Of a stretch of 64,000 nt of DNA, positions 13,983 to 53,915 are shown piece after piece. Numbering within the stretch: the first letter of the stretch is position 1; each line of letters starts with the position of its first letter. The notes under the pieces are model-generated. The model saw nothing but the letters and a program-made list of their open reading frames with translations. It made no database searches and was not told the DNA's origin. Where the stretch lies: positions 1 to 64,000 of IMG/VR virus record IMGVR_UViG_3300021963_000094; one strand, given 5' to 3'. Both the position numbers and the translations under genes were made by a program. The DNA is from a virus.

Positions 13983-14762
13983 ATGTCTTTACAAAATTTA
14001 CAAGAATCTAATATAGAAAGGACGCAACACTTCTTAGGTGTTGTTGTTGACAACAAGGACCCAGAGTTCAGAGCTAGATGCAGGGTTAGGGTTTTTGGTG
14101 TTTTTGATGATGTTAAAGACGAGGATCTTCCTTGGGCATTTCAAAGGTTCGATATATCTTTTGGTGATAACGGCGGATCCGGTAGGGTTAGTATACCTAA
14201 GCTAGGTTGTATAGTTCATGTTCAATTCAATAACGGAAATTATTACACTCCAGAATACAAAGCAGTACAGGAACTTTCAAAGGATCTAATAACAGAATTA
14301 AGCGCTTCTTACGAAGGTGCTCATTCACTAATATACGATGGTATAGAGAAACTTAAAATATATTACACCGTTGCTAAAGGATTGGTTATAGATTTAAAAG
14401 AATCTACTGTTGTAATATCCAATGATAATTCCATAACAATAACACACGCAGGTCAAACATCAACCCTAGAATTCAGGGGTGGAAAGATAACAGAATTTGC
14501 TAATTCTGAAATTGAAAGCACAGCAACAACTAGAATTAAACAAAGCAGTAACGAAGTTTGGGTAGACGGTAAAACCACTAAGCTTGGACATGCTCCTGTA
14601 TACTCAGCTATTCTTGCTGAACCATTATGGATGTTTCTGAAACAACTTGCAGCAGCAGTTGATGCTAAACTTCCATCTACACCAGGAGCAATGACAAGTT
14701 TAGCTGAAAGCTATGAACAACTATCAACCTCAGATGTAGTTAAAGTAACAAAGTCTAATTAA
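13983..14762 (+). CDS. Baseplate spike/hub protein with gp5-type OB fold
   Basis: A 259-aa protein with the N-terminal OB-fold of the gp5/VgrG/gpV spike family. Residues 18-60 read FLGVVVDNKDPEFRARCRVRVFGVFDD, then DLPWAFQRFD. PKLGCIVHVQFNNGNYYTPEY (about 77-97) completes the barrel; this is the usual 'W...P.....G..V.V.F..G....P' order. No lysozyme domain is present, unlike T4 gp5. The second half (about 115-200) is a run of short beta strands that could make the triple-stranded needle. It follows the hub and tube-cap genes, with the same logic as T4 gp27-gp5. No separate PAAR-tip gene is visible nearby. Fairly confident. Confidence 0.8.
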   Translation: MSLQNLQESNIERTQHFLGVVVDNKDPEFRARCRVRVFGVFDDVKDEDLPWAFQRFDISFGDNGGSGRVSIPKLGCIVHVQFNNGNYYTPEYKAVQELSKDLITELSASYEGAHSLIYDGIEKLKIYYTVAKGLVIDLKESTVVISNDNSITITHAGQTSTLEFRGGKITEFANSEIESTATTRIKQSSNEVWVDGKTTKLGHAPVYSAILAEPLWMFLKQLAAAVDAKLPSTPGAMTSLAESYEQLSTSDVVKVTKSN

Positions 14763-14767
14763 GATAA

Positions 14768-17700
14768 ATGGATTTTAATTTCAATAAACTTCAGGACATA
14801 AGTGATAGAATATCCAGCGGTGAATTAAAACCAGAGGATGTTCTTAACGAGTTTAGTGGATTTACTGACGATCTTCCTAGTGACGAAGAGATAATCAATA
14901 ATGCCCAGGAGTTAGAAAAATCAATAGAGCCGGTTCCTTTAATTTTAACCGACGATGAAATTAACGACCTTATCTGTTCTTATGATGGAGAGGAACTAGC
15001 TAATAGAACTTTTTGGGAGATATTAAGAAAACAAAATTATTTAGACAGAATATCAGAATTGCCGGACTTTTCTAGGAATAGAAATTTCGATAAATTCATG
15101 GATGATAATAATCTTTCCAACGAACTTAACGGTGCTAAAGAAATGATTTCTGACAATTTAGATTTAGATCTTCTTGGAATAAAATTTTCAGGATCTAACA
15201 GAAAAATCAGAAGATTTAAAATAGGTCCATTTGGATTTGACATTCATATTATAACACATAAAGGAGTTCCTCTATTTTTTCACGTTGCACCCAAAAAGAT
15301 GTCTTTAAGTTTTATAAGGGATCAGCTGAAGAAAAAAAGTAAAAAAGGAAAAGCTAAGAAATGCTCCGATGATATCTACAATAAATTTGGATCTGGTTCA
15401 GGACCATCAACTTCTGACAACAATGACTTTGGTGATGGTACCGGATCAGAAGCTGGATCTGATTCGGGTTTTGGATCGAACAATATAGATCCGGAAAAAT
15501 TATCATCCCTCCTAGATAATATTTTAGACAGAGAAGCTTCGGAAAAAGATTCTAATAATGCATTTGATGTTTCGGATATAGTAGATCAGGTTTTTTGTGA
15601 ACCAGATTTTCCCATTAACCCCGAAACGGGAGAACCGCTTTTCACAAAAGAGGATCTTAAATCTTTCATAGAGGAGATTTGCTTACCGGAGGAAGAATCT
15701 GCAATACCCGAGGTTTTACCTGAGGGTGATATAGATGATGTAACAGAAAAGGTAAATAAATGTCTAAGTCAAGCAAAGGAAATATTTAAAGATGTAAGGG
15801 AAAATAACGAACTTAGATCTAGATATGAAAAAGCAGAAAAAGATTTAGAAGAAATCCTATATCATTATAAGATAGTTAAAAACTACTACAATGGGCTTTC
15901 TAAATCATTTGAGGCCAAAGCAAAATCTGGAAAGAAAGGAAATCCTTTAACTCTACTTTTAACTTTAGTCTTAGCTTCATCCGATGCAAATAAATTTTTA
16001 GATGCTGTAAAGAATTTTTCTGCTAGGTTTAAAGAAACCAAAAAACAAACATCACCCGGTAAAAAAGGATATGTTGGTATTAAATTTGATATAGCATTTC
16101 CTCATGGCCTTGGTGGGGATCTCCCTTACGAAACTGTTAAACCAGAAGCAACCTCCGATTTACTTTCATCAGACTATGAGAGAGTAGATTTAACTAAGCT
16201 TCAACTTGGGATGGAATTCTCAAGTAAAGGAATTCTTGGATCGGGCAATTCTGATTTTCTTAAATCTTATGAAGATTTTATAATATTCAGAGACGAGAAT
16301 CCAAAACTTGATGTGCCTTTCTACAATTTCATTCAGGACATAGAAGGATCCAACAAACCAAAGGAAGCTATTATAAAAGATATAGAGAAAAATCATGGAT
16401 TTCTTTATTCTAATCTTTTAGAGATTTCTGCAAACCCGTGGCTATTCTTTACTGCAGACGAAAGAGGGGATAATGATGCTAGAAAATCAGCGGACATAAA
16501 ACCACAGAGCACAAATAGTGACGGAGAACCAAATCAATCATTTAGCGACTTCTGGGGTAATTTTAAAAAATCTTTTGATACTAAATACAATGCAAGAAAG
16601 AAGATAGTAGAGGATAAAATAAATTCGATCAAAGTTCTTTCTGATAAATTCGTAGACACCCTTGCTGATTACTATTTCACTGTTAATCTAAGTTCTACCT
16701 CTAATAATAGTAAGCTACTAAAGGATGCATCGGACAAAGCGGATAAGAACGTTAGCTATATCGAGGATCTTTTACTTTCAATAGCTCAGAAGATACAGGA
16801 ACTAGATCAGAAAAACTCCCCGGAGGTTTTACAATCTAGAGCCGAGTCTATAGATTGTTTTGGCTCTGCCAATGATGGTAGCGAAAACAGTGGAGGATCT
16901 TCTTCTACTGGTATTGGGGTTTCTATTGGACTTGATGCAAACGGAAACCCGAACAATTCTACTCCTGACACACTAAAGGCTGCTTGCCCTCCGGATTGTT
17001 GCGGTGCTTCTGGTCAGGCATTTTCGGGTGGGGGTATAATAGACGGATTAAACTCTCCAGACTGTCCTAATTTATTCACAACATGTTATTGGAAAGAATT
17101 TGCTAAAAAAGCCACGACAGTTGGAATCCTCCCAATTCCTAATGGATTACCACCAATTGAAAATCCTGCTGGATTTCTACCGAACATCGGTTTAAAATAT
17201 TGGCCGGTCGGATATCTTCCGCCATCTTTTATTCCTTTACCCCCGCCATTGGTTAATCCCCTTGACGGAACTCCTTTCATAAGAATTCCTATGCCTATGA
17301 TATGGACTATTATACCTCCAATAGTTATACCATTGCCTATAGGGGTTATAGTTATATTCATACCGTTCATAGGTGGATTTATGCCTAGTCCGTTAGTTTT
17401 CTTCCATGATTTTTTAACCGGAAATTCAATATTTCTTTTGGGTATTAGAGGATTTAGATTTATACCTAGAAAATCAGATCCTGTTATACCAGATCCATTA
17501 GTTAGATTAAAGCAATTTTTATCCCTAGGAGTACCTAACTATCTTTTTCCTTTCCCAAATCTTGGTAAGGACAACGTCGACGATCCTAAGAGAATAAAAA
17601 AAGACATTTTAGCAAATCTTAAAAAAAGATTATCAAATGCTAAAGTTAATATCGATTTTTCCAAGATTCAAAAAGTACAGGATGATTTGGCTAAAAAGAA

Positions 17701-19309
17701 AGCAGATCTAGAAAATCAGGTGCTTGATTTGAAAAGAAAGTCTCCACTTGATGGTTCAGATCCTAAACAAAAGATGAAAGAATTAAAGGAGCTTTCTGCA
17801 TCTTTTGATGCTCAGAAGATAGAAGCTGTTAGATCCGTGATGAAAGATTATTTAAAAAACTCTATCACGGTTCCTGATATACAATTCCCTAAGCAGTCTA
17901 AAAATCTGATTGCTGAAATACCATCTCCTATAAAGATTATAAGAGACACTAACGCCAAGATAAAAATAGGTGCAATTCCACAAATTCCGTCTGCTGGTAA
18001 AAAAGTTAATTTAAAATCCAGAATATTAGACTCTGTAAAAAATATAGAATTCAAGGCAGCATCTAAATATGCAGATCTTAACAAAGATTTACCTAAAGGC
18101 TCAAGAATAGTTGCGGTATTTAATTCACCAATAAATGAGTTAGGTAAAAGCCAGGAGGATGTTGAATCTTTAAAGGGATTGATATCTGATGGGATAGGAC
18201 AGATATTCAGTGGAGATAAATCTCCTCTAAGTAACAAATCTCTTCTAACCTTCAAACCTAAACTAAAAAAGATTCCAAGAATTCCGGGAGCAGGTCTTCC
18301 CGCACCAGGAGCTATAATAGCAACGCCTAATCCTATAGTTAATTCTGTTAAAGGATTTATTAATAAAAATCTGAATGTCAATGTTCAGGATTTAGTAAAG
18401 CTTGCAGATCGAACTTCTATCGGAGGTAACAAAGTTTTAAGGGAAAAAGATTTGCAATTAATGATTAGGAATTCTCTAGATAAAACTTTAAGCAAATTCC
18501 CAGTTGATCTAAAGAATGTTAATTTCCAAAATATTGCTAGTGCAGGTGATGTTGCTCAAGAATATTCTAAGTTTTGTTCTTCTTTAGAACTTCCTCCATT
18601 TCCTCCAAAGAAGAGTGGCAATCCTGCTGTTCCCCTGGGACCTGGCGGAATACCACCGATAATAATTCCAGGCTCTGTTGTTTCAAACTTTATAGTGAAG
18701 GGAGCTTCATCAGCGATAGATTCCGTGGATGTTTCTAAAATTATTCCTGGCGGATTATCTGCATTTGATAATTTAGCTGCAGATGACATCAAAGTTATGA
18801 CAAACAATATTGCGGTTTCTTTTTTTAACAAAGCAAGCATACCAGCTATTGATAATTTGCCATCAATTCCTTTAGAAGCAAGACCCCAAGATTACATAGA
18901 GCTTGTTATGAGCTTTTTACCGGTTCATCCTTATGCTGATATAGCATTCACGTTATTGTGGACCAAATTTAAAAACCCGCCGAGGATTCCGATCCCTCCT
19001 GAAATAATAGAACCTCTGTTAGCACTACAAAAAGCTATAGTGTATAAACTACCTTGGCCTATCGTAGTATTACTTGGAAGAAATGTTATTAACATTTTAA
19101 ATCCCCTTTATACAAGAGAAGATATTCCTAGATGGGATAGAATGTCTTTGAAAAATCCATTTTTTGTTGTTTTTCTGGACGAATTTATCAGATCAGCTGC
19201 GGATATATCTGGAGGATTCAAATTCTTTATAGGCGCGGGAAAATTATTTTATCCCCTCCCAACTCTTGAAATTAATTTGGGATTTGGTACTAAAATCAAC
19301 ATAAACTAA
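14768..19309 (+). CDS. Very large tail/baseplate protein with proline-punctuated hydrophobic segments
   Basis: A 1513-aa protein with no recognised family. Residues 1-200 are acidic and helical. A Gly/Ser/Asp-rich linker lies at about 210-240. A coiled-coil-like charged segment covers about 335-370, and a short Cys-rich stretch (CPPDCCG, then CPNLFTTC) lies at about 740-775. Residues about 787-885 are very hydrophobic but broken by many prolines (for example IPMPMIWTIIPPIVIPLPIG), followed by helical regions. A second such stretch lies at about 1369-1448. It sits between the spike gene and the S1-repeat gene. A tape-measure or membrane-contacting tail role is possible by size and hydrophobicity, but this is inference. 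Confidence 0.65.
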   Translation: MDFNFNKLQDISDRISSGELKPEDVLNEFSGFTDDLPSDEEIINNAQELEKSIEPVPLILTDDEINDLICSYDGEELANRTFWEILRKQNYLDRISELPDFSRNRNFDKFMDDNNLSNELNGAKEMISDNLDLDLLGIKFSGSNRKIRRFKIGPFGFDIHIITHKGVPLFFHVAPKKMSLSFIRDQLKKKSKKGKAKKCSDDIYNKFGSGSGPSTSDNNDFGDGTGSEAGSDSGFGSNNIDPEKLSSLLDNILDREASEKDSNNAFDVSDIVDQVFCEPDFPINPETGEPLFTKEDLKSFIEEICLPEEESAIPEVLPEGDIDDVTEKVNKCLSQAKEIFKDVRENNELRSRYEKAEKDLEEILYHYKIVKNYYNGLSKSFEAKAKSGKKGNPLTLLLTLVLASSDANKFLDAVKNFSARFKETKKQTSPGKKGYVGIKFDIAFPHGLGGDLPYETVKPEATSDLLSSDYERVDLTKLQLGMEFSSKGILGSGNSDFLKSYEDFIIFRDENPKLDVPFYNFIQDIEGSNKPKEAIIKDIEKNHGFLYSNLLEISANPWLFFTADERGDNDARKSADIKPQSTNSDGEPNQSFSDFWGNFKKSFDTKYNARKKIVEDKINSIKVLSDKFVDTLADYYFTVNLSSTSNNSKLLKDASDKADKNVSYIEDLLLSIAQKIQELDQKNSPEVLQSRAESIDCFGSANDGSENSGGSSSTGIGVSIGLDANGNPNNSTPDTLKAACPPDCCGASGQAFSGGGIIDGLNSPDCPNLFTTCYWKEFAKKATTVGILPIPNGLPPIENPAGFLPNIGLKYWPVGYLPPSFIPLPPPLVNPLDGTPFIRIPMPMIWTIIPPIVIPLPIGVIVIFIPFIGGFMPSPLVFFHDFLTGNSIFLLGIRGFRFIPRKSDPVIPDPLVRLKQFLSLGVPNYLFPFPNLGKDNVDDPKRIKKDILANLKKRLSNAKVNIDFSKIQKVQDDLAKKKADLENQVLDLKRKSPLDGSDPKQKMKELKELSASFDAQKIEAVRSVMKDYLKNSITVPDIQFPKQSKNLIAEIPSPIKIIRDTNAKIKIGAIPQIPSAGKKVNLKSRILDSVKNIEFKAASKYADLNKDLPKGSRIVAVFNSPINELGKSQEDVESLKGLISDGIGQIFSGDKSPLSNKSLLTFKPKLKKIPRIPGAGLPAPGAIIATPNPIVNSVKGFINKNLNVNVQDLVKLADRTSIGGNKVLREKDLQLMIRNSLDKTLSKFPVDLKNVNFQNIASAGDVAQEYSKFCSSLELPPFPPKKSGNPAVPLGPGGIPPIIIPGSVVSNFIVKGASSAIDSVDVSKIIPGGLSAFDNLAADDIKVMTNNIAVSFFNKASIPAIDNLPSIPLEARPQDYIELVMSFLPVHPYADIAFTLLWTKFKNPPRIPIPPEIIEPLLALQKAIVYKLPWPIVVLLGRNVINILNPLYTREDIPRWDRMSLKNPFFVVFLDEFIRSAADISGGFKFFIGAGKLFYPLPTLEINLGFGTKININ

Positions 19310-19331
19310 AATCATTTAAAAACAAACAAAA

Positions 19332-20456
19332 ATGGCTAAGAAAAGACAATACACAAGAGACGAGTATTCTCCGGAAGAAAGGGCTATTATGGACGAACTT
19401 TACGAAGGTCACTTTAGAGTAAATTTCGCAGATAACCCTGCCCAATCATATTCTAAGGAGCTAGAAGAAAATCAAGTTCTAAGTGTAAAAATCACACAGA
19501 TCAGAGGAACCAGTGCAATAGGTGAAACGTCTGTTGGACAATCTGTTGCGATAGATTTAATGAAAGAAGAAAAAGCAATCAAGAGATTAGGATTCCCTGC
19601 ACTTAATGTACAGGAAGGATCTCAGCTTGATGTTGTAATATTCAAAGATAAATCTGGAATGTATAATGGATCTTTAGCAGCAGGCTATGAGAATTCATTA
19701 AAGACCGAATTATTAAATTCGATCAAGGAAGAGAAAACAGCATACACGGTGAGAATCGATTCAACATGTCCTGGAGGATTTATGGTGAACCTTTCTGGTA
19801 TCAAGTGTTTCTTACCTGGTTCATTAGCAGCAGCTAATAGAATTATAGATTTCCAATCATTTGTTGGAAAAACAATCAATATAATGATTGAGACTTACGA
19901 TGAAAGAAGAGACATTTTTGTTGTTTCCTTCAAAAAGTATCTTAAGCATGTTATTGATGCTAAAGTGGAAGAATTATCTCTCACACAAAAATACACAGGT
20001 ACAGTTACAGGTATGTCAACTGCAGGTGTATTCGTTGAATGGGATGAGTATTACACTGGTTTAATCCCAGCAGAGGAATTTGATAATGCCGGAATTAAAA
20101 TGGATCTAAACGCAGGAGGAAGCGTGTCATTCTATGTTTCTGACTTCAGAAATCCAAACAGAATAGTATTAAGATTAAACCCACCTGAAGGAAAAGATAG
20201 GGACTTACAGGAACTTAAAGACATTTCTTTATTGGAAGATAAAGAAAATAAAATATATAGAGGGACAGTGTCAAAGGTGAAAAACTTCGGGGTTTTTGTA
20301 AAACTTGAAAATAACATCGTTGGCCTTGTTGAAAAGGACTATTTGGCTGGAAATCCAAAAGATTATGAAGTAGGATCTGAAATATCCTGCACTATCATGG
20401 ACGTAGAGCTACAGAGTTCAAAACTCTATTTAAAGGAAAAAATTGAAAATACTTGA
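19332..20456 (+). CDS. Protein with S1-type RNA-binding repeats
   Basis: A 374-aa protein made of S1-like OB repeats. Two are clear: residues 219-283 (KYTGTVTGMSTAGVFVEWDE, then GLIPAEEF) and 307-370 (KIYRGTVSKVKNFGVFVKLE, then GLVEKDYL and VGSEISCTIMDV). A more diverged repeat lies at 134-203, and a degenerate one at about 46-120. This is the architecture of ribosomal protein S1 and related RNA-binding proteins, and it is shorter than bacterial S1 (usually six repeats). It sits inside the baseplate block. It could recruit host ribosomes to phage mRNA or protect RNA; the cellular role is inferred. The ATG at 19332 lies in an A-rich leader. Confidence 0.85.
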   Translation: MAKKRQYTRDEYSPEERAIMDELYEGHFRVNFADNPAQSYSKELEENQVLSVKITQIRGTSAIGETSVGQSVAIDLMKEEKAIKRLGFPALNVQEGSQLDVVIFKDKSGMYNGSLAAGYENSLKTELLNSIKEEKTAYTVRIDSTCPGGFMVNLSGIKCFLPGSLAAANRIIDFQSFVGKTINIMIETYDERRDIFVVSFKKYLKHVIDAKVEELSLTQKYTGTVTGMSTAGVFVEWDEYYTGLIPAEEFDNAGIKMDLNAGGSVSFYVSDFRNPNRIVLRLNPPEGKDRDLQELKDISLLEDKENKIYRGTVSKVKNFGVFVKLENNIVGLVEKDYLAGNPKDYEVGSEISCTIMDVELQSSKLYLKEKIENT

Positions 20457-21903
20457 TCAAAATTTTTATTACGCAGCTAAAATCGGATTCGAATTCGAAT
20501 TCATGTCTTCTTTCTCTAGGAAGGAGATAGCCGAGAAAATTGGGGAAGATTTAGGGAAACAGGTAAAAGTCTTTAGAAAATACCACTCTAAATTTTCCCC
20601 AACTCGTGATATTTTTAAGCTGGAGCCTGATTTTTCTGGGGGTCTTAAGATGGTTGAGCTGATAACCGGACCCATGGATTACTTCGAGGCAATCCCCGTT
20701 TTAATTAGAATTTTAAAATGGATAGACGAAAACGGATATACTAACGAAAGATGTGCACTCCAATTTGGTCTAAGCTTTGATAGAGTAAAATATCCTTCGT
20801 TAATAGATTTTAGCCAACTAAATCCCCTGAAATTTGTTTTGGGATTTGATGAAGAATTCATCTGGAAGAAATTTCCGGAGAGAAGAGGATCTTTATATGC
20901 GAAGTCAATCAAAAGAATATCCCCTTCTAATAGATTTGTAAGAGGACATAAAGACATTCTAGGAGACAGAAACTCATATACTGTTTACACAGAAAAAAAT
21001 ATGGGTGTTAATCTAACCAAGTTACAGGACGGGTATATGGAGGTTAGGTATATGGGTGGAACGGATTATCAGAAAAAGTACACAGACATCAAAGAAATTA
21101 TAGATTATCTGATATCTCATACTTTTAATTGTCTTTTGCATAACGATACTCTTACACAAAAAGAAACATCGACCCTTAGTGAATTGATATCTAAGGTTTA
21201 TAAAGAAACTGAAAGTTTTATAGATCCTGAGTCTTTCATGAGAAACTATCCAGATCTACACGTTACTGTCGATTTAAGAGAGGATTTACAGATAATTAAA
21301 ACTTATTTTAATGAGGTTAAAAATTTCCTATACAGTTTAATTGTAGATAATGGAATCACAGAAGGATTCTTAAACTACGACACGCAAATTGCTAAGTACC
21401 AATTAAAGGATGGTAAAACAAAAACAGCTAACATGCTAAAAGATCTAGATCTGATAGAATGTGAAATTGAAGGAAACGTAGCAAGATGTAGAATATTTGG
21501 CTGTAAGTTAGAAAACTGCCAGATAGAAGATTCCCAGTTAGTCATGAACAATGACGTAACGGATTCTAAAATCCTTGACTGCGATCTTAGTTTTAGCAAC
21601 AACATTTCAAATTCGTATATAGATTCAAAGGATAGAGAAATCAGCTGCGAGGTTACTGGCGGTGTTATTAGGTCTGGTTATATAACAAAACTGGCTGAGA
21701 TATCATCTTCAACTGAAATTATCAGTAATGGTGCAGATCCTAAAGGTAAAGACAAAGGAAAAGGAAAGGGTGGAAAAATGATTAAATCCACAATTTTCCC
21801 AGATAGAAACTACGAGGATATCGTAAAACCAGAGCCTTTCGAGGATCTAAATAATCGAAGACCATCTTTTTCCGTAAACCAGCTGTATAAAAATAATAAT
21901 TAA
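20443..21903 (+). CDS. Amidoligase-like (ATP-dependent COOH-NH2 ligase) protein with a beta-helix-like C-terminal part
   Basis: A 486-aa protein. Residues 1-250 look like the Amidoligase_2 family, which is related to glutamine synthetase and joins carboxyl and amino groups: KIGFEFEFMS (13-22), a VELITGP strand (71-77), a C-A-L-Q-F-G-L-S segment (104-111) in the place of the usual CGxHxH, and YMEVRYMGGTDYQ. The His residues of the third motif are missing, so activity is not certain. Residues about 335-430 hold short repeating strands rich in C, D, I and S (LIECEIEGNVARCRIFGCKL type), like a small beta-helix. The end has a Lys/Gly-rich patch. A TTG start at 20443 follows an AAAGGA sequence and overlaps the S1 gene by 14 nt. 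Confidence 0.65.
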   Translation: MKILDQNFYYAAKIGFEFEFMSSFSRKEIAEKIGEDLGKQVKVFRKYHSKFSPTRDIFKLEPDFSGGLKMVELITGPMDYFEAIPVLIRILKWIDENGYTNERCALQFGLSFDRVKYPSLIDFSQLNPLKFVLGFDEEFIWKKFPERRGSLYAKSIKRISPSNRFVRGHKDILGDRNSYTVYTEKNMGVNLTKLQDGYMEVRYMGGTDYQKKYTDIKEIIDYLISHTFNCLLHNDTLTQKETSTLSELISKVYKETESFIDPESFMRNYPDLHVTVDLREDLQIIKTYFNEVKNFLYSLIVDNGITEGFLNYDTQIAKYQLKDGKTKTANMLKDLDLIECEIEGNVARCRIFGCKLENCQIEDSQLVMNNDVTDSKILDCDLSFSNNISNSYIDSKDREISCEVTGGVIRSGYITKLAEISSSTEIISNGADPKGKDKGKGKGGKMIKSTIFPDRNYEDIVKPEPFEDLNNRRPSFSVNQLYKNNN

Positions 21904-21905
21904 GA

Positions 21906-22676
21906 ATGACTACATCAGAAGAGGCACTAATACAAGAGGTAAAGGACGACATATCTCATTCTTGCGCATTACCATATGCACTGAACGATCAGGAGATAAA
22001 AAGGATCATAAAAAGAGCGAAGGCATATTTTTATGATAACTATCAATATGCGGTAGAGGATAAAATAATGGTGTTACCTTCACAATTATTCAGTACCCAA
22101 CAATTCAGAGCGACCAGACAAATCCAATTACCAGACTGCGTTATAGGTGTTTGGGACGTGAGAGAAGTAGGAGGAGCTGGTATAGTTGGAACCCCGGATA
22201 AGGATTTTGGAGATGCTAAGCTATTAGGTTCGGAGCTTATGCTTAGCCCTTTTATAGGTGATAACCTTGTTTATAGAACAGTTTTATACTCATTTTTCGA
22301 TCTTGCAAAAGCTTTTTTATTGGAGACTTTTGCATTCAATTACAACAAAAACACTAAAAGATTAACTATAAATGGTAGAGATCCTAGTAGAGCAACTTCT
22401 TCTGGAATGACCATGGGAGGTAAAGATGTCGGGGTTAGAGCTTTTATTGCAATACCTGACGAGAATCTTTATTCCGACGAGCTTTTTGTTAGATATGTGC
22501 TTGCTGAAGCAAAAATTAACATAGGCAGACTTTTAGGCACATTTGGCTATCAATTGCCAGGAGGCGTAACCATAAATGCTGCAGCTATTCAAGGAATTGG
22601 ACAAGCAGAGAAAACCGAGGTTATGGAGATGATTAAAAGTGAAAATACGCCAAGTTACTTCCTACAGTGGAATTAA
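21906..22676 (+). CDS. Phage structural protein of unknown role (256 aa)
   Basis: A 256-aa protein without signal peptide or enzymatic motif. The N-terminal part is helical (about 24-45), the middle is beta-rich (LPDCVIGVWDVREVGG), and the C-terminus includes RYVLAEAKINIGRLLGTFGYQLPGGVTINA (about 198-227) and a final NTPSYFLQWN. The 'LGxFxxxLPGGVxINA' block is one I associate with T4-like virion proteins, but I cannot name the gene. It lies just upstream of gp25- and gp6-like genes, separated by a promoter-like gap, so a baseplate or neck position is likely. Confidence 0.6.
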   Translation: MTTSEEALIQEVKDDISHSCALPYALNDQEIKRIIKRAKAYFYDNYQYAVEDKIMVLPSQLFSTQQFRATRQIQLPDCVIGVWDVREVGGAGIVGTPDKDFGDAKLLGSELMLSPFIGDNLVYRTVLYSFFDLAKAFLLETFAFNYNKNTKRLTINGRDPSRATSSGMTMGGKDVGVRAFIAIPDENLYSDELFVRYVLAEAKINIGRLLGTFGYQLPGGVTINAAAIQGIGQAEKTEVMEMIKSENTPSYFLQWN

Positions 22677-22724: not shown

Positions 22725-23096
22725 ATGATCAAAATTTCGGACATATACCCAAGAAATCCAGACGACCCGCTTTACGAGGCGGATAAGCTTGAGACTGATG
22801 ATGTTGTTGAATCTACCGTAGGTATGATAAAACAGATCATGCTAACCAAGCCGGGGACTGTTTTGGGCGATCCGTATTTTGGCATCGATCTGGAATCAAT
22901 GATATTTGATTTTGAGGTGTCCCAAAGTGAATTGGAAGAAGCTATATCGTTACAGCTTTATACGTATTGTACTTTTGCTAGGGGCATTCTTAATATCGAT
23001 TTTCAATTGGGATTCTTTGAAGGCGAAACAAGAGATACGTGTGTGATAGAGTTCGCAATCAAAGGTAATCCAGTTCTAGGAATAAAGGTAATTTAA
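22725..23096 (+). CDS. Baseplate wedge protein, gp25-like
   Basis: A 123-aa protein of the gp25/GPW family, the small sheath-like wedge component that starts sheath assembly in contractile tails. Features are the 'V...I.QIM.T.PGT...DP.FG.DL' region (about 34-60, GMIKQIMLTKPGTVLGDPYFGIDL) and a C-terminal strand set (CVIEFAIKGNPVLGIKVI). The length is normal. It is immediately followed (2 nt) by a gp6-like gene, the usual partner order (gp25 then gp6). It is preceded by a good purine-rich ribosome-binding stretch and a candidate promoter. I consider this one of the safest tail assignments in the window. Confidence 0.85.
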   Translation: MIKISDIYPRNPDDPLYEADKLETDDVVESTVGMIKQIMLTKPGTVLGDPYFGIDLESMIFDFEVSQSELEEAISLQLYTYCTFARGILNIDFQLGFFEGETRDTCVIEFAIKGNPVLGIKVI

Positions 23097-23098
23097 AA

Positions 23099-24823
23099 AT
23101 GGATTTATTTAAAAAAAATCGTGCCAAGATACAAGACCTGCTCCAGGACACTCTTGAGCTAATACAAAAAAGATATAATCAAGCAAATCAGCTATTTACT
23201 GTTGCTTCTGCCTGGGGACAGATATTGTTCGTTCTACAGAACCTATCTCAACTTATTTTATTCTTTATCGAAGACTCCATAACGGAGCTTGATATCAATA
23301 AGGCGAGCAGAGAAAGCTCTGTTTATGGATTAGCAGCTCTAACTGGACACAACGCTTCCAGAAGTAGCTGTGCAAGAGGGCAGGTAGATATCACATGGAA
23401 TGGACAGGATTCTACCAGTGTAGGTGGAAGTGCAATATTAATTCCTAAATATTCTTCAATTAAATTTCAAAACGGAGGTATAAACTATCTTTTAAACCTA
23501 CCACAGGACTATGCAAGATTAAACCTAACGCCTTCTACCAAAATCTCTTGTGAAATAATCGAGGGAAGTATTAGAGCTTCAACTTTTACCGGGAGTGGAA
23601 CAATATTACAAAGCTACAATGTTTCCGATAGGGTAACATCCACCGTAGACAACTTCGAGGTTAAGGTCTTCGTCGACAGCGAAGAATGGAAAATATACGA
23701 TTCACTTTACGATATACCTTTTAATTATAACGGATGCCTGGTTAAAACCGGTATCAATAATGGTATTGATGTTATTTTCGGGAACACCAACTTTGGAAAA
23801 ATACCACCCCTTGGGTCTACCATCCAGGTTCAATATGTTGAAACTATAGGGGTTTCTGGAAATATCAATTCGATAGATCCAGGTAAGATATCATTTGAAT
23901 TTGATGATGATGGAACAGATGCTTTTGGTAATCCTGTTTCTTTAAGTGATTATTTAAAAATAACCTGTGTTACTGCTCCACAACTTGGAACAGACAAAGA
24001 ATCTATTCAGCTTACAAGAATATTAGCACCTAAAACATCAAGATCTTTTGTTTTAGCAAATGCTGAAACGTATACCACATATTTTGAAAAATTTGGTACA
24101 TTCTCTATTATAGAGGCATTCTCAACATTTGATGATCAATATCTCGATGATGATAATATTATTTATGTTTTACTAGTTCCTGATATCAGACAAAAATTAA
24201 AAACGAATGAAACGTATTTCGATATAAAGGAAACTGAGTTTACCTTAACCGATTATCAAAAACAAAGACTTTTAAAAGTAATAGACGAGAGCGGGCAAAA
24301 GATTGTAACAACTGAGGTAAAAATATTAGATCCTAAAATATCTAGATATGTTATAAACGTTCTGATTAGCATATTCGAAGGATATGACCCAAGTACAGTT
24401 AAGGGACAAATAGTCGATTCCATAAGCTCTTATTTTATAGGAATAAGAAGAAGAGACAAGATACCAAGATCTGATCTAATCGCTATTCTAGAATCTATCC
24501 CAGGGGTAGATTCTGTTACATTATTCTTCGTAAGTGAGAAAAATGAAAAATATGCTAGAAGCGTAGAAAATCTTGCAGACACAGATCCTAAGAAAAATCT
24601 AGTTCTTGGATTAGACGAGTTTGGTGATATCGTTTTTGGTAAAGATGAAATAGCAATTATAACAGGTGGATGGGGAGACAGAACTGGACTTTACTACGAC
24701 CAAGGTGCTGATTATAACAAACTTTCATCTATCAACATAGATATTAGAGCAACTGTTCCGGTAACATATAACACCGAGATTAATATGAAGAACAAGACGT
24801 TCCTAAAAAATAACAATCAATAA
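23099..24823 (+). CDS. Baseplate wedge protein, gp6/J-like
   Basis: A 574-aa protein that fits the gp6/baseplate J family, which forms the iris-like ring of wedges around the hub. The N-terminus is helical (about 5-65, with SVYGLAALTGHNASR following), then a long beta-rich middle with ARGQVDITWNG and GGSAILIPKYSSIKF (about 95-130). A conserved-looking region follows near VPDIRQKLKTNETYFDIKETEFTL. The C-terminal domain includes IPRSDLIAILESIPGVDSVTLFFVSE (about 460-485), typical of J proteins where a final strand swaps. The size is near T4 gp6. It overlaps the next gene in a TAATG junction. Identification is by architecture and the gp25 neighbour. Confidence 0.8.
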   Translation: MDLFKKNRAKIQDLLQDTLELIQKRYNQANQLFTVASAWGQILFVLQNLSQLILFFIEDSITELDINKASRESSVYGLAALTGHNASRSSCARGQVDITWNGQDSTSVGGSAILIPKYSSIKFQNGGINYLLNLPQDYARLNLTPSTKISCEIIEGSIRASTFTGSGTILQSYNVSDRVTSTVDNFEVKVFVDSEEWKIYDSLYDIPFNYNGCLVKTGINNGIDVIFGNTNFGKIPPLGSTIQVQYVETIGVSGNINSIDPGKISFEFDDDGTDAFGNPVSLSDYLKITCVTAPQLGTDKESIQLTRILAPKTSRSFVLANAETYTTYFEKFGTFSIIEAFSTFDDQYLDDDNIIYVLLVPDIRQKLKTNETYFDIKETEFTLTDYQKQRLLKVIDESGQKIVTTEVKILDPKISRYVINVLISIFEGYDPSTVKGQIVDSISSYFIGIRRRDKIPRSDLIAILESIPGVDSVTLFFVSEKNEKYARSVENLADTDPKKNLVLGLDEFGDIVFGKDEIAIITGGWGDRTGLYYDQGADYNKLSSINIDIRATVPVTYNTEINMKNKTFLKNNNQ

Positions 24824-51461: not shown

Positions 51462-53915
51462 ATGTCAAGCTTCACTTATACCAGTAAATTTTTTAGTCTG
51501 GCTCCGTATTTACTTATGGAGTACAGATATGGTACACAGCCTAATCCAGAGAATCATCCGGTACTATACGGACTAGATGCAATAGGGTTCGAAAAGATCT
51601 CTAATGGATATTTTAATGGTGCTGTTCAAATAACAAACAGAAATCAAGACACACAGGCAACTGGTAACGTAAGAGACAGAAGCTCGGTTCAGATCTCGCA
51701 GAACACCTTTGTTAGACTTGATATAGACCGTTTGCAGGAATACCTTGATTATGACGATAAGCTAACTGATGTTAGCAACGTCCCTGTTGAATTTGAAAAC
51801 AACATTAATGTTTATTATGACACGGTAAGGTATCACTTTATAAGTGGATACAATTTTGGAACAAAGGATGGTGCTATCATGCAAATCCAATTCCAAGAAA
51901 GAAATGGTAAAAAAGCCACTATCTCACAGGTAACATACGAGAAGGGTGATATTGATATCACAACACCTAATCCAAATCCAATTTATTTTAATGCTGGGAT
52001 ATATGATCATTATATAGAGGTTAAGATACCTTCTTATGCTTCAATCACTTATGATTACGACACACAAGCAGTAAATGGATTAGCTGATCAAACGATTGCT
52101 TCTAAGATTAGTTCTGATGGCCAGGGGTTCATTAGAAATCAACCTTTCAATGTTTCTCTTTATGAAATAGAAACAACGAATGAAATCAACGAGTTCTTCT
52201 ATTATCAAACTGCTTTATTTACAATTGCAACAATCACTCCTTTCGATGAGTATGCAGATCTAGCAGCTAATATAGTGGAGAATGAAGACTTTGATTACTT
52301 TGAATACTATCCTTCTTGGCAAGGAAATTTCATCGAAGATTTTATCTATGCTGAAAGTTCTTTAGGTAACATATACTATATCATTCACGATATTGAATTA
52401 AAAGAGCAGATAGGACTTAGAAGAGTTTCCACACAGAAAATACAATTACTTCAAGACAAGGATTTTAACAGTCCTTACTTGTATCGTCCAGTTGTAATGA
52501 ATCCGAAAGCAACTAGCTTTTCCATTAACTACTCAATGAGATTAGTTAATAAATTTAGCAACGTTTCTATTCTGAGAACATCAACTGTTACTAGTACAGA
52601 AGTTGACAAATATGGCCCAGGGGTAAAGAGAATAAATCTATTACATCAACCATATCCACAAAAGGTTTACAATAAAGTTGTTGAACCTGCTGTTTCTAAA
52701 GCATACACACTAAACGTGAATCCAATTGAAAGAGTTATCACCAAATACGTTCCTGCTTTCTTCGAAAGAGAAAACGTGAACATCTCGGAGGAAGATTTAA
52801 CAATAGACAATCTTGGTGGATTAACACAATCTGCAACAGTCGATGCATCAATAGCATTTGGCCAGGGCAAATCTAAGATCGTGATCAATCCTTATGACAA
52901 CTACTACAAGTTTAGAGTTTTTGTTAAAAATGATGGGAAAGAAAATACGTTATTAGATCTTGGATCAAATTCTGATTTTTATCTTGTATTCGAAGGTGGA
53001 GACAGTAAAACTGTAAGGGTATCTAGTTTAATTAACAGCACTTTCCAAAATCCTAGCAAAGGTGAATTAGTATTTAGAGTTGTTGAATCTGATTCTAAAA
53101 AAATAGCAGCATTCACTGGAAGAGATTTTCATATAGTTGCAAAAACTAATAATGGAATAGAAACGTCAATTTATCACGGATATTGGATATTACCTAGTGA
53201 GAGAGATCAGAAGCCAGTTGCGGTAACACCCGCAACTCCTCCTCCTGTTCCAGCACCAGTAATAATTGCACCAGTTCAGGCAACATCTGCACCTGCGCCA
53301 GCACCTGCACCTGCTCCTGCACCTACTGCATCTCCAACACCGGCACCACCACCGCCACCTGTTCCATCACCGATTGAAGTTGCCACACCAGCACCTGCAG
53401 CACCAACTGTTGATATTATACCTCAACAGCCTAAAGAATACTTTGACGTGAAAACTGACCCTGTTATTCTGAACGTTGAACCTGCTGTGATAAGAACACC
53501 AATCATTGAAGAACCAGTAATAGTGAAAAAAGTTCCGATCAGAGCTGATATTGATACTTTGGCCAATCTAATTAAGATGGATGAAAATGCAGGAAAATTA
53601 GTTCCTGAAATTTGTGACTACTATACAGTTCCTGGAAATCCTGGAAATCTTCTTTATGAGGGTATAAATGTTAGATTCTTCTTAAACGCAGTTAGATTAG
53701 TTCATCCAGACATATTCGGAAGAAGAAGCGACGAGTTTGCAATGTATGCTAATTACCTAGGAGAAATCTATGATCCTTATGAGAATCAAAGATATCCATC
53801 AGGCGGTGGAGGTGGAGCAGGTGGTGGATACATCGGAGGCGGCGGAGTAGGATATAACATCTACGATAAAATACAAGACAAAAGCGAAACGATGGGTCAA
53901 ACCTTCTTTCTATAA
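51462..53915 (+). CDS. Large virion structural protein with Pro/Ala linker
   Basis: An 817-aa protein. Residues 1-580 are a beta-rich body with no family I recognise. Residues about 587-653 are a flexible linker rich in Pro and Ala (for example APAPAPAPAPAPTASPTPAPP). The C-terminal part (about 655-790) is a compact domain with LVPEICDYYTVPGNPGNLLYEG, then a Gly-rich tract (GGGGGAGGGYIGGGG), then a short tail. The layout of body, proline linker, tip and glycine tract repeats what is seen in the PTPA fibres nearby. It is probably part of a tail appendage; specific role unknown. Confidence 0.6.
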   Translation: MSSFTYTSKFFSLAPYLLMEYRYGTQPNPENHPVLYGLDAIGFEKISNGYFNGAVQITNRNQDTQATGNVRDRSSVQISQNTFVRLDIDRLQEYLDYDDKLTDVSNVPVEFENNINVYYDTVRYHFISGYNFGTKDGAIMQIQFQERNGKKATISQVTYEKGDIDITTPNPNPIYFNAGIYDHYIEVKIPSYASITYDYDTQAVNGLADQTIASKISSDGQGFIRNQPFNVSLYEIETTNEINEFFYYQTALFTIATITPFDEYADLAANIVENEDFDYFEYYPSWQGNFIEDFIYAESSLGNIYYIIHDIELKEQIGLRRVSTQKIQLLQDKDFNSPYLYRPVVMNPKATSFSINYSMRLVNKFSNVSILRTSTVTSTEVDKYGPGVKRINLLHQPYPQKVYNKVVEPAVSKAYTLNVNPIERVITKYVPAFFERENVNISEEDLTIDNLGGLTQSATVDASIAFGQGKSKIVINPYDNYYKFRVFVKNDGKENTLLDLGSNSDFYLVFEGGDSKTVRVSSLINSTFQNPSKGELVFRVVESDSKKIAAFTGRDFHIVAKTNNGIETSIYHGYWILPSERDQKPVAVTPATPPPVPAPVIIAPVQATSAPAPAPAPAPAPTASPTPAPPPPPVPSPIEVATPAPAAPTVDIIPQQPKEYFDVKTDPVILNVEPAVIRTPIIEEPVIVKKVPIRADIDTLANLIKMDENAGKLVPEICDYYTVPGNPGNLLYEGINVRFFLNAVRLVHPDIFGRRSDEFAMYANYLGEIYDPYENQRYPSGGGGGAGGGYIGGGGVGYNIYDKIQDKSETMGQTFFL

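What the first reader, a model, noticed from the sequence alone, without database searches (positions are those of the whole stretch)
19332..20456. Phage S1-repeat protein in a genome whose starts are A-rich and lack Shine-Dalgarno sites
The gene encodes two clear and two weaker S1 repeats. Across the window most start codons are preceded by A/T-rich leaders such as AAAAAATG, AAATAAATG or AAAAATGG. Bacteroidota are known for SD-poor initiation. A phage S1-like protein might steer ribosomes to phage transcripts, or compete with host S1. Its location inside the baseplate operon suggests late expression.
Basis: partly seen in the sequence, partly recalled or inferred. Interest (0 to 1): 0.68.

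Follow-up and report, generated by a model that had tools for sequence, protein, structure and literature searches.

The report
Phage version of ribosomal protein S1
A large virus of Bacteroidota bacteria carries a shortened, long-diverged relative of the bacterial ribosomal protein that brings messenger RNA to the ribosome; such genes in huge phages are already published, and the unusual start signals around it turn out to be those of the host group in general, not a trait tied to this gene.

Summary
The gene is real: 374 aa, four S1/OB domains, under strong purifying selection (dN/dS 0.04-0.09). By profile it runs colinearly along bacterial ribosomal protein bS1 from the N-terminal docking helix to the end of domain 4 (E 3.6e-44). 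That is the piece shown in E. coli to be sufficient for mRNA docking; domains 5-6 are absent. In the window's own clade the uS2 zinc-pocket lysine and part of the domain-3 RNA surface are lost. Starts are A-rich and lack Shine-Dalgarno (SD) sites (window 3%; 24 of 666 starts in 83 S1-positive loci; T4 64%). However, Bacteroidota phages without S1 and Flavobacteriaceae genes show the same, so the leaders are host grammar, not evidence for S1 action. The baseplate-operon position is confirmed for this lineage; other lineages carry S1 elsewhere. Eleven of 17 large S1 contigs also encode bS21. The idea that such phages use S1 on SD-less mRNAs is published (Al-Shayeb 2020). Most likely function: a late bS1 substitute or supplement on host 30S subunits. 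New member of a known kind.

The parts
19332..20456 (+). CDS of the bS1-like protein, 374 aa
   Evidence: dN/dS 0.04-0.09
19310..19331 (+). 22-nt A-rich leader without SD site
   Evidence: sequence; conserved A-rich in relatives
19371..19430 (+). N-terminal helix (aa 14-33), counterpart of the bS1 helix that docks on uS2; Y24 at the place of E. coli Phe9
   Evidence: (E 1.3e-3 to the bS1 N segment)
19458..19685 (+). OB domain 1 (aa 43-118), bS1 D1-like; lysine of the uS2 zinc pocket replaced by G69 in this clade
   Evidence: hhalign D1 vs bS1 D1 E 3.6e-13, best of six
19731..19940 (+). OB domain 2 (aa 134-203), bS1 D2-like; F150 and F160 kept, K117 counterpart is P
   Evidence: hhalign D2 vs bS1 D2 E 3.7e-15, best of six
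19977..20183 (+). OB domain 3 (aa 216-284); canonical RNA-face residues replaced by A231 and P246 in the window's clade
20247..20441 (+). OB domain 4 (aa 306-370), bS1 D4-like; protein ends here (no D5-D6)
   Evidence: hhalign D4 vs bS1 D4 E 1.7e-23, best of six; PF00575 best stretch 303-363
20443..21903 (+). next gene, conserved TTG start overlapping the S1 stop by 14 nt; weak amidoligase-like N-terminus
   Evidence: (PF12224 E 0.0018, below cut-off)
13983..14762 (+). baseplate hub / gp5-like gene, conserved neighbour
   Evidence: PHROG 430 E 7.7e-14; synteny
14768..19309 (+). 1513-aa gene of unknown function just upstream
   Evidence: no significant family match
21906..22676 (+). neck / head-tail adaptor (T4 gp13-like)
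   Evidence: PHROG 211 E 2e-7; hhalign gp13 85%, E 6.5e-6
22725..23096 (+). gp25-like baseplate wedge subunit (weak match)
   Evidence: PHROG 261 E 0.0023
23099..24823 (+). gp6-like baseplate wedge subunit
   Evidence: PHROG 219 E 4.2e-24

Best explanation
The protein is a phage-lineage relative of ribosomal protein bS1, cut down to the N-terminal helix plus OB domains 1-4. Shown: the domain order, the colinear match to bS1 residues 2-348, the family's single phage clade, purifying selection, and the position in a baseplate operon of a Bacteroidota-type phage. Inferred: the helix and D1 dock on uS2 of the host 30S subunit in place of, or beside, host bS1; D2-D4 line the mRNA exit side and hold unstructured, A-rich 5' leaders; and because the gene lies among baseplate genes it is made late, supporting bulk synthesis of virion proteins when host bS1 is limiting or diverted. 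It probably raises initiation on A-rich, SD-less leaders in general rather than reading a phage-only signal, because no phage-specific leader signal was found.
For: Full-length profile match to bS1, aa 17-371 to E. coli 2-348, E 3.6e-44; D1, D2 and D4 each match their own bS1 counterpart best. Foldseek's first PDB hit is bS1 in the 30S mRNA-delivery complex, E 3.2e-24. The N-terminal helix resembles Bacteroidota bS1 (Y at the Phe9 place: 33 of 54 phage, 25 of 40 bacterial sequences). E. coli bS1 lacking D5-D6 is viable and only slightly impaired in 30S initiation-complex formation, and D1-D3 is the minimal core (PMC3858243); D4 is placed over mRNA -12 to -15 (PMC6847099). Strong purifying selection. 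One S1 gene of this family in each of 17 large contigs. bS21, which contacts bS1 on the platform (PMC10123108), is co-encoded in 11 of 17 large contigs and in 4 of 7 named huge phages.
Against: No binding, expression or proteomic data. The window's clade lost the uS2 zinc-pocket lysine (G69) and two RNA-face residues of D3 (A231, P246), which the other phage clades mostly keep. Scores stay far below the curated bS1 cut-offs (87 against 577 bits). Leaders do not differ from those of S1-free relatives. In Lak phages the gene lies near a tRNA-His guanylyltransferase, a DnaB-type helicase and an RNA ligase, not structural genes.
Confidence: 0.58

Rival explanations
1. Off-ribosome RNA-binding protein: a chaperone or stabiliser of phage transcripts (or an anti-termination helper) that descends from bS1 but no longer needs the 30S subunit.
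For: The uS2 zinc-pocket lysine is lost in the window clade; the branch to cellular bS1 is long, about 1.4-3 changes per site; in Lak phages the gene lies beside RNA-processing genes.
Against: The docking helix and D1 are kept under strong selection and match bS1 D1 best; two canonical RNA-face residues of D3 are lost in the same clade, which is no better for a pure RNA binder.
Confidence: 0.2
2. Inhibitor or decoy: it occupies the uS2 site and displaces host bS1, so that host mRNAs that need D5-D6 or strong unfolding are shut off.
For: Truncated D1-D4 form without D5-D6 in the window clade, D1-D3 in Lak; partial loss of RNA-face residues in D3.
Against: Most phage members keep RNA-face residues in D3 (46-54 of 54 at three places) and D4 (29-53 of 54), which a mere plug would not need; E. 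coli bS1 without D5-D6 still works (PMC3858243).
Confidence: 0.12
3. Virion component: packaged in the tail or baseplate, possibly injected to act at once on ribosomes.
For: The gene is embedded between baseplate genes in the window lineage and in about 46 of 80 distant loci.
Against: Cultured phages with related baseplates (Tenacibaculum PTm1, Flavobacterium MaF61) lack it; other lineages keep S1 in different neighbourhoods; the whole protein is explained as bS1-like.
Confidence: 0.08
4. Cofactor of a phage RegB-type mRNA nuclease, as host S1 is for T4 RegB.
For: Host S1 activates T4 RegB (stated in PMC13157829).
Against: No RegB family (PF10715) in 14 S1-carrying records, while T4 itself rings at 1.1e-69.
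Confidence: 0.02

Closest known systems
rpS1-like proteins of huge phages (Al-Shayeb et al. 2020, PMC7162821)
   Same: S1-domain proteins in huge phages that rarely show SD sites; role in initiation proposed. Uncultured huge-phage genomes LR7565xx/LR745206, which I take (from memory) to be from that study, are in the same clade as this protein.
   Different: Here the domain identity (N-helix plus D1-D4), the single origin and the host-level explanation of SD-lessness were tested; the paper left 'true rpS1' open.
Cellular bS1 (rpsA; E. coli, Flavobacterium)
   Same: Same order helix-D1-D2-D3-D4, OB2 Phe130 counterpart invariant, Bacteroidota-type docking helix.
   Different: No D5-D6; separate clade on a long branch; conserved phage-only D2 motif of the kind 'P[GN][ST]LA..N[KR]' in place of 'PGS.VD.RPVRD'; loss of K43/K117 counterparts and of parts of the D3 RNA face in the window clade.
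Phage-encoded bS21 (PMC6375957, PMC9723584)
   Same: Ribosomal protein of the mRNA exit platform carried by Bacteroidota phages, lying among structural genes, proposed to redirect host ribosomes late; often in the same genomes as S1.
   Different: bS21 is a small separate protein; its late transcription was measured, that of S1 was not.
bS1 of Microcystis jumbo phage PhiMa05 / MaAM05 (PMC13157829)
   Same: A bS1-like gene in a jumbo-phage record.
   Different: Reported to group with Vampirovibrio bS1 (separate acquisition); the flanking genes look cellular.

Membership tests
Cellular bS1 (rpsA equivalog) | Score above the curated TIGR00717 / NCBIfam S1 cut-offs | tested here: not met
   87 bits against 577; 83 against 368
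Cellular bS1 (rpsA equivalog) | Colinear D1-D4 domains, 4-6 OB repeats | tested here: met
   17-371 aligned to 2-348, E 3.6e-44; D1, D2, D4 each best to its counterpart, D3 ambiguous between D4, D5 and D6
Cellular bS1 (rpsA equivalog) | N-terminal helix with an aromatic at Phe9 for uS2 | tested here: met
   Helix 14-33, Y24 as in most Bacteroidota bS1
Cellular bS1 (rpsA equivalog) | Lysine 43 in the uS2 zinc pocket | tested here: not met
   G69 in all 7 window-clade rows; K or R in 46 of 54 phage rows; K in 39 of 40 bS1
Cellular bS1 (rpsA equivalog) | OB2 mRNA pocket K117, F120, F130 | tested here: inconclusive
   F/Y150 and F160 kept in 54 of 54, K117 counterpart never K
Cellular bS1 (rpsA equivalog) | Groups inside cellular bS1 in a tree | tested here: not met
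   59 phage rows on one side of a branch, SH-aLRT 100; 14 rows 100/100 in the careful tree
Cellular bS1 (rpsA equivalog) | Binds the 30S subunit | not testable with these tools
   needs biochemistry
Huge-phage rpS1 group of Al-Shayeb 2020 | S1-repeat protein in a large phage genome | tested here: met
   94% identical sibling in a 245-kb contig; homologues in 462-735 kb genomes
Huge-phage rpS1 group of Al-Shayeb 2020 | Genome rarely has SD sites | tested here: met
   3-4% of starts

The most novel reading that the evidence does not exclude
The phage rebuilds the mRNA-exit side of the host 30S subunit with its own bS1-like protein together with its own bS21, giving late-infection ribosomes a changed choice of mRNA; the phage bS21 genes read here lack SD sites in their leaders, whereas Flavobacteriales rpsU carries an extended SD used for autoregulation, so they would escape that control.
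Probability: 0.17. Interest if true: 0.75.

Novelty: new member of a known kind. Interest (0 to 1): 0.4.

Why it matters
Whether phages specialise host ribosomes is open. This family gives a testable object: a compact D1-D4 bS1 relative in phages of SD-less hosts, where bS1 has been proposed to replace SD pairing. The controls also weaken a published inference: the link between phage S1 and missing SD sites is, for this family, confounded by host phylum and by a single origin, so it should not be used as evidence for an S1 role until independent acquisitions are compared.

Tried and rejected
(1) 'SD-less starts point to the phage S1': rejected, S1-free Bacteroidota phages and host genes look the same. 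(2) RegB-type nuclease partner: none in 14 S1-carrying records, T4 control positive. (3) Recent theft from the host: rejected, long-separated phage clade. (4) 'Always in the structural cluster': not upheld; of three main neighbourhoods only one is clearly baseplate, the others flank mostly unknown genes, and Lak differs. (5) Phage-specific leader signal against the host: a per-position comparison gave mainly differences at -27 to -29 and -2, but the host set comes from genes next to rpsA and is not independent, so I draw nothing from it. (6) T4-type late promoter (TATAAATA) or strict Bacteroidota promoter in front of the gene: none near it. (8) Identification of the window genes at 51462, 53926, 37026 and 40602 by profile against T4 proteins gave nothing.

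Full report
What is there. The ORF at 19332-20456 encodes 374 aa. PF00575 hits it with three stretches (E 7.5e-16); the closest solved proteins by sequence are bacterial ribosomal proteins S1 (E 6e-17). A profile of 54 phage relatives aligned to an alignment of 40 bacterial bS1 proteins runs colinearly from aa 17-371 to E. coli 2-348 (E 3.6e-44). Cut into domains, D1 finds bS1 D1 best (3.6e-13), D2 finds D2 (3.7e-15), D4 finds D4 (1.7e-23); D3 is ambiguous between D4, D5 and D6. The AlphaFold2 model from the 54-row alignment (pLDDT 81, pTM 0.55) has an N-terminal helix and four OB folds, and its first PDB match is bS1 in the 30S mRNA-delivery complex (E 3.2e-24). Viral relatives annotated '30S ribosomal protein S1' exist in the viral structure library. 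The gene is under strong purifying selection (dN/dS 0.04-0.09).

Docking and RNA-face residues. In E. coli the bS1 helix stacks Phe5/Phe9 on uS2, Lys43 enters the uS2 zinc pocket, and Lys117/Phe120/Phe130 of OB2 form an mRNA pocket (PMC10123108). The phage protein has M20/L23/Y24/E25 where Bacteroidota bS1 mostly has M or L/L/Y/E or D; F150 and F160 are kept; the Lys43 place is K or R in 46 of 54 phage sequences but G in the window's clade, and the Lys117 place is never K in that set. The S1-fold RNA-face residues of D3 (aromatic before the glycine, and the later His) are kept in 47 and 46 of 54 but are A and P in the window's clade; in D4 the window clade keeps both Phe but has E for His (the choice of these face residues rests on my knowledge of the S1 fold). 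So the family looks like a working bS1 core, with the window's clade more derived. In E. coli, bS1 without D5-D6 supports growth and initiation, D1-D3 is the minimal core, and shorter forms are lethal (PMC3858243). The phage family ends after D4, and Lak after D3, which fits that boundary.

Family and history. Named phages with a relative are the Lak megaphages and uncultured huge phages of 462-735 kb. In a careful tree, 14 phage sequences form one group (100/100) apart from 27 Bacteroidota and 5 other bS1 proteins; 59 phage sequences do so again in a quick tree. Long branches make the attachment point unsure, so the donor cannot be named. Each of 17 large contigs has one such gene.

Neighbourhood. 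In the window the gene sits in a run of + strand genes with gaps of -14 to 48 nt, between a gp5-like hub gene and neck, gp25-like and gp6-like genes. The next gene starts with a TTG, conserved in close relatives, inside the S1 stop region. The same order is found in LR756500 and in about 46 of 80 distant loci; 16-17 loci have S1 behind homologues of window genes 37026 and 40602, and 10-12 behind homologues of 51462 and 53926. Those neighbours are mostly unknown, one is a weak tail-tube match, and Lak S1 lies by nucleic-acid genes. So the baseplate context is a lineage trait, and late expression is an inference.

Start sites. I called genes with a simple hexamer method and used only ATG starts without another start codon within 45 nt in frame. 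SD-like motifs occur at 3% of 31 window starts, 4% of 147 starts in the 245-kb sibling, 4% of 75 in the 148-kb relative, and 64% of 28 in T4; across 83 S1-positive loci 24 of 666 starts. S1-free controls: Cellulophaga phi14:2 1 of 31, Tenacibaculum PTm1 0 of 25, Flavobacterium MaF61 1 of 11, Flavobacteriaceae host loci 3 of 77; A content at -18 to -11 is 51-60% in all of these. crAss001, also S1-free, gave 3 of 12, too few to weigh. A profile search found no S1 of this family in those control phages (that search had no positive control of its own). The control shuffles preserve only the base composition of the 35-nt leader. The conclusion is that the leaders follow the known Bacteroidota grammar (PMC6847099; PMC9976891) and carry no information about S1. 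Al-Shayeb et al. had read the same correlation as a hint of function (PMC7162821); given a single clade and, as far as can be told, a single host phylum it is one data point.

Host. After uncultured huge phages and Lak, the closest cultured relatives of the wedge protein are a Flavobacterium and several Tenacibaculum phages, with Sphingomonas phage PAU among them and Chryseobacterium phages further down. Together with the start grammar this supports Bacteroidota, without proof.

bS21. Eleven of 17 large S1 contigs, including the 94% sibling of the window, also encode bS21, as do four of seven named S1 phages; four S1-free Bacteroidota phages do not. The five phage bS21 leaders that could be read lack an SD, in contrast to host rpsU, whose extended SD serves autoregulation (PMC9976891). 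bS1 and bS21 touch on the platform (PMC10123108). This makes a paired exchange thinkable; nothing here shows it.

Verdict. A genuine phage bS1-like protein, most likely acting on host 30S subunits late in infection. New member of a known kind, with the start-site half of the finding explained by the host.

Noticed in passing
window 20443-21903: Gene after S1 uses a conserved TTG start (ATG in the more distant L022/L024), overlaps the S1 stop by 14 nt, has a weak amidoligase-like N-terminus and a repetitive, pentapeptide-like C-terminal part.
   Followed up: partly
L265 (245-kb sibling G002:C1:18962-19114) and L267-L270: bS21 genes in S1-carrying phages; the five readable leaders have no SD motif, unlike the extended SD reported for Flavobacteriales rpsU.
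   Followed up: partly
window 14768-19309: 1513-aa gene between the hub gene and S1 has no significant family match and no detected counterpart at that place in L022/L024 despite conserved flanks.
   Followed up: no
L273 (MW495066, 1000-50000): The first 50 kb of Microcystis phage MaAM05 holds ordinary bacterial genes (ispG, mqnC, trpS, ruvA, nusG, pgi) around its rpsA, and 4 of 12 usable starts have SD motifs; its ribosomal genes may be of cellular origin or a mixed assembly.
   Followed up: partly
phages collection, hits: Many short records named Listeria, Enterococcus, Escherichia or Salmonella phage carry near-cellular rpsA or other S1-domain genes and look like host contamination.
   Followed up: no
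genomes G040, G044, G060, G076: Some Bacteroidota genomes hold a second S1-like protein of about 520-560 aa (238-273 bits to TIGR00717, positions about 70-430).
   Followed up: no
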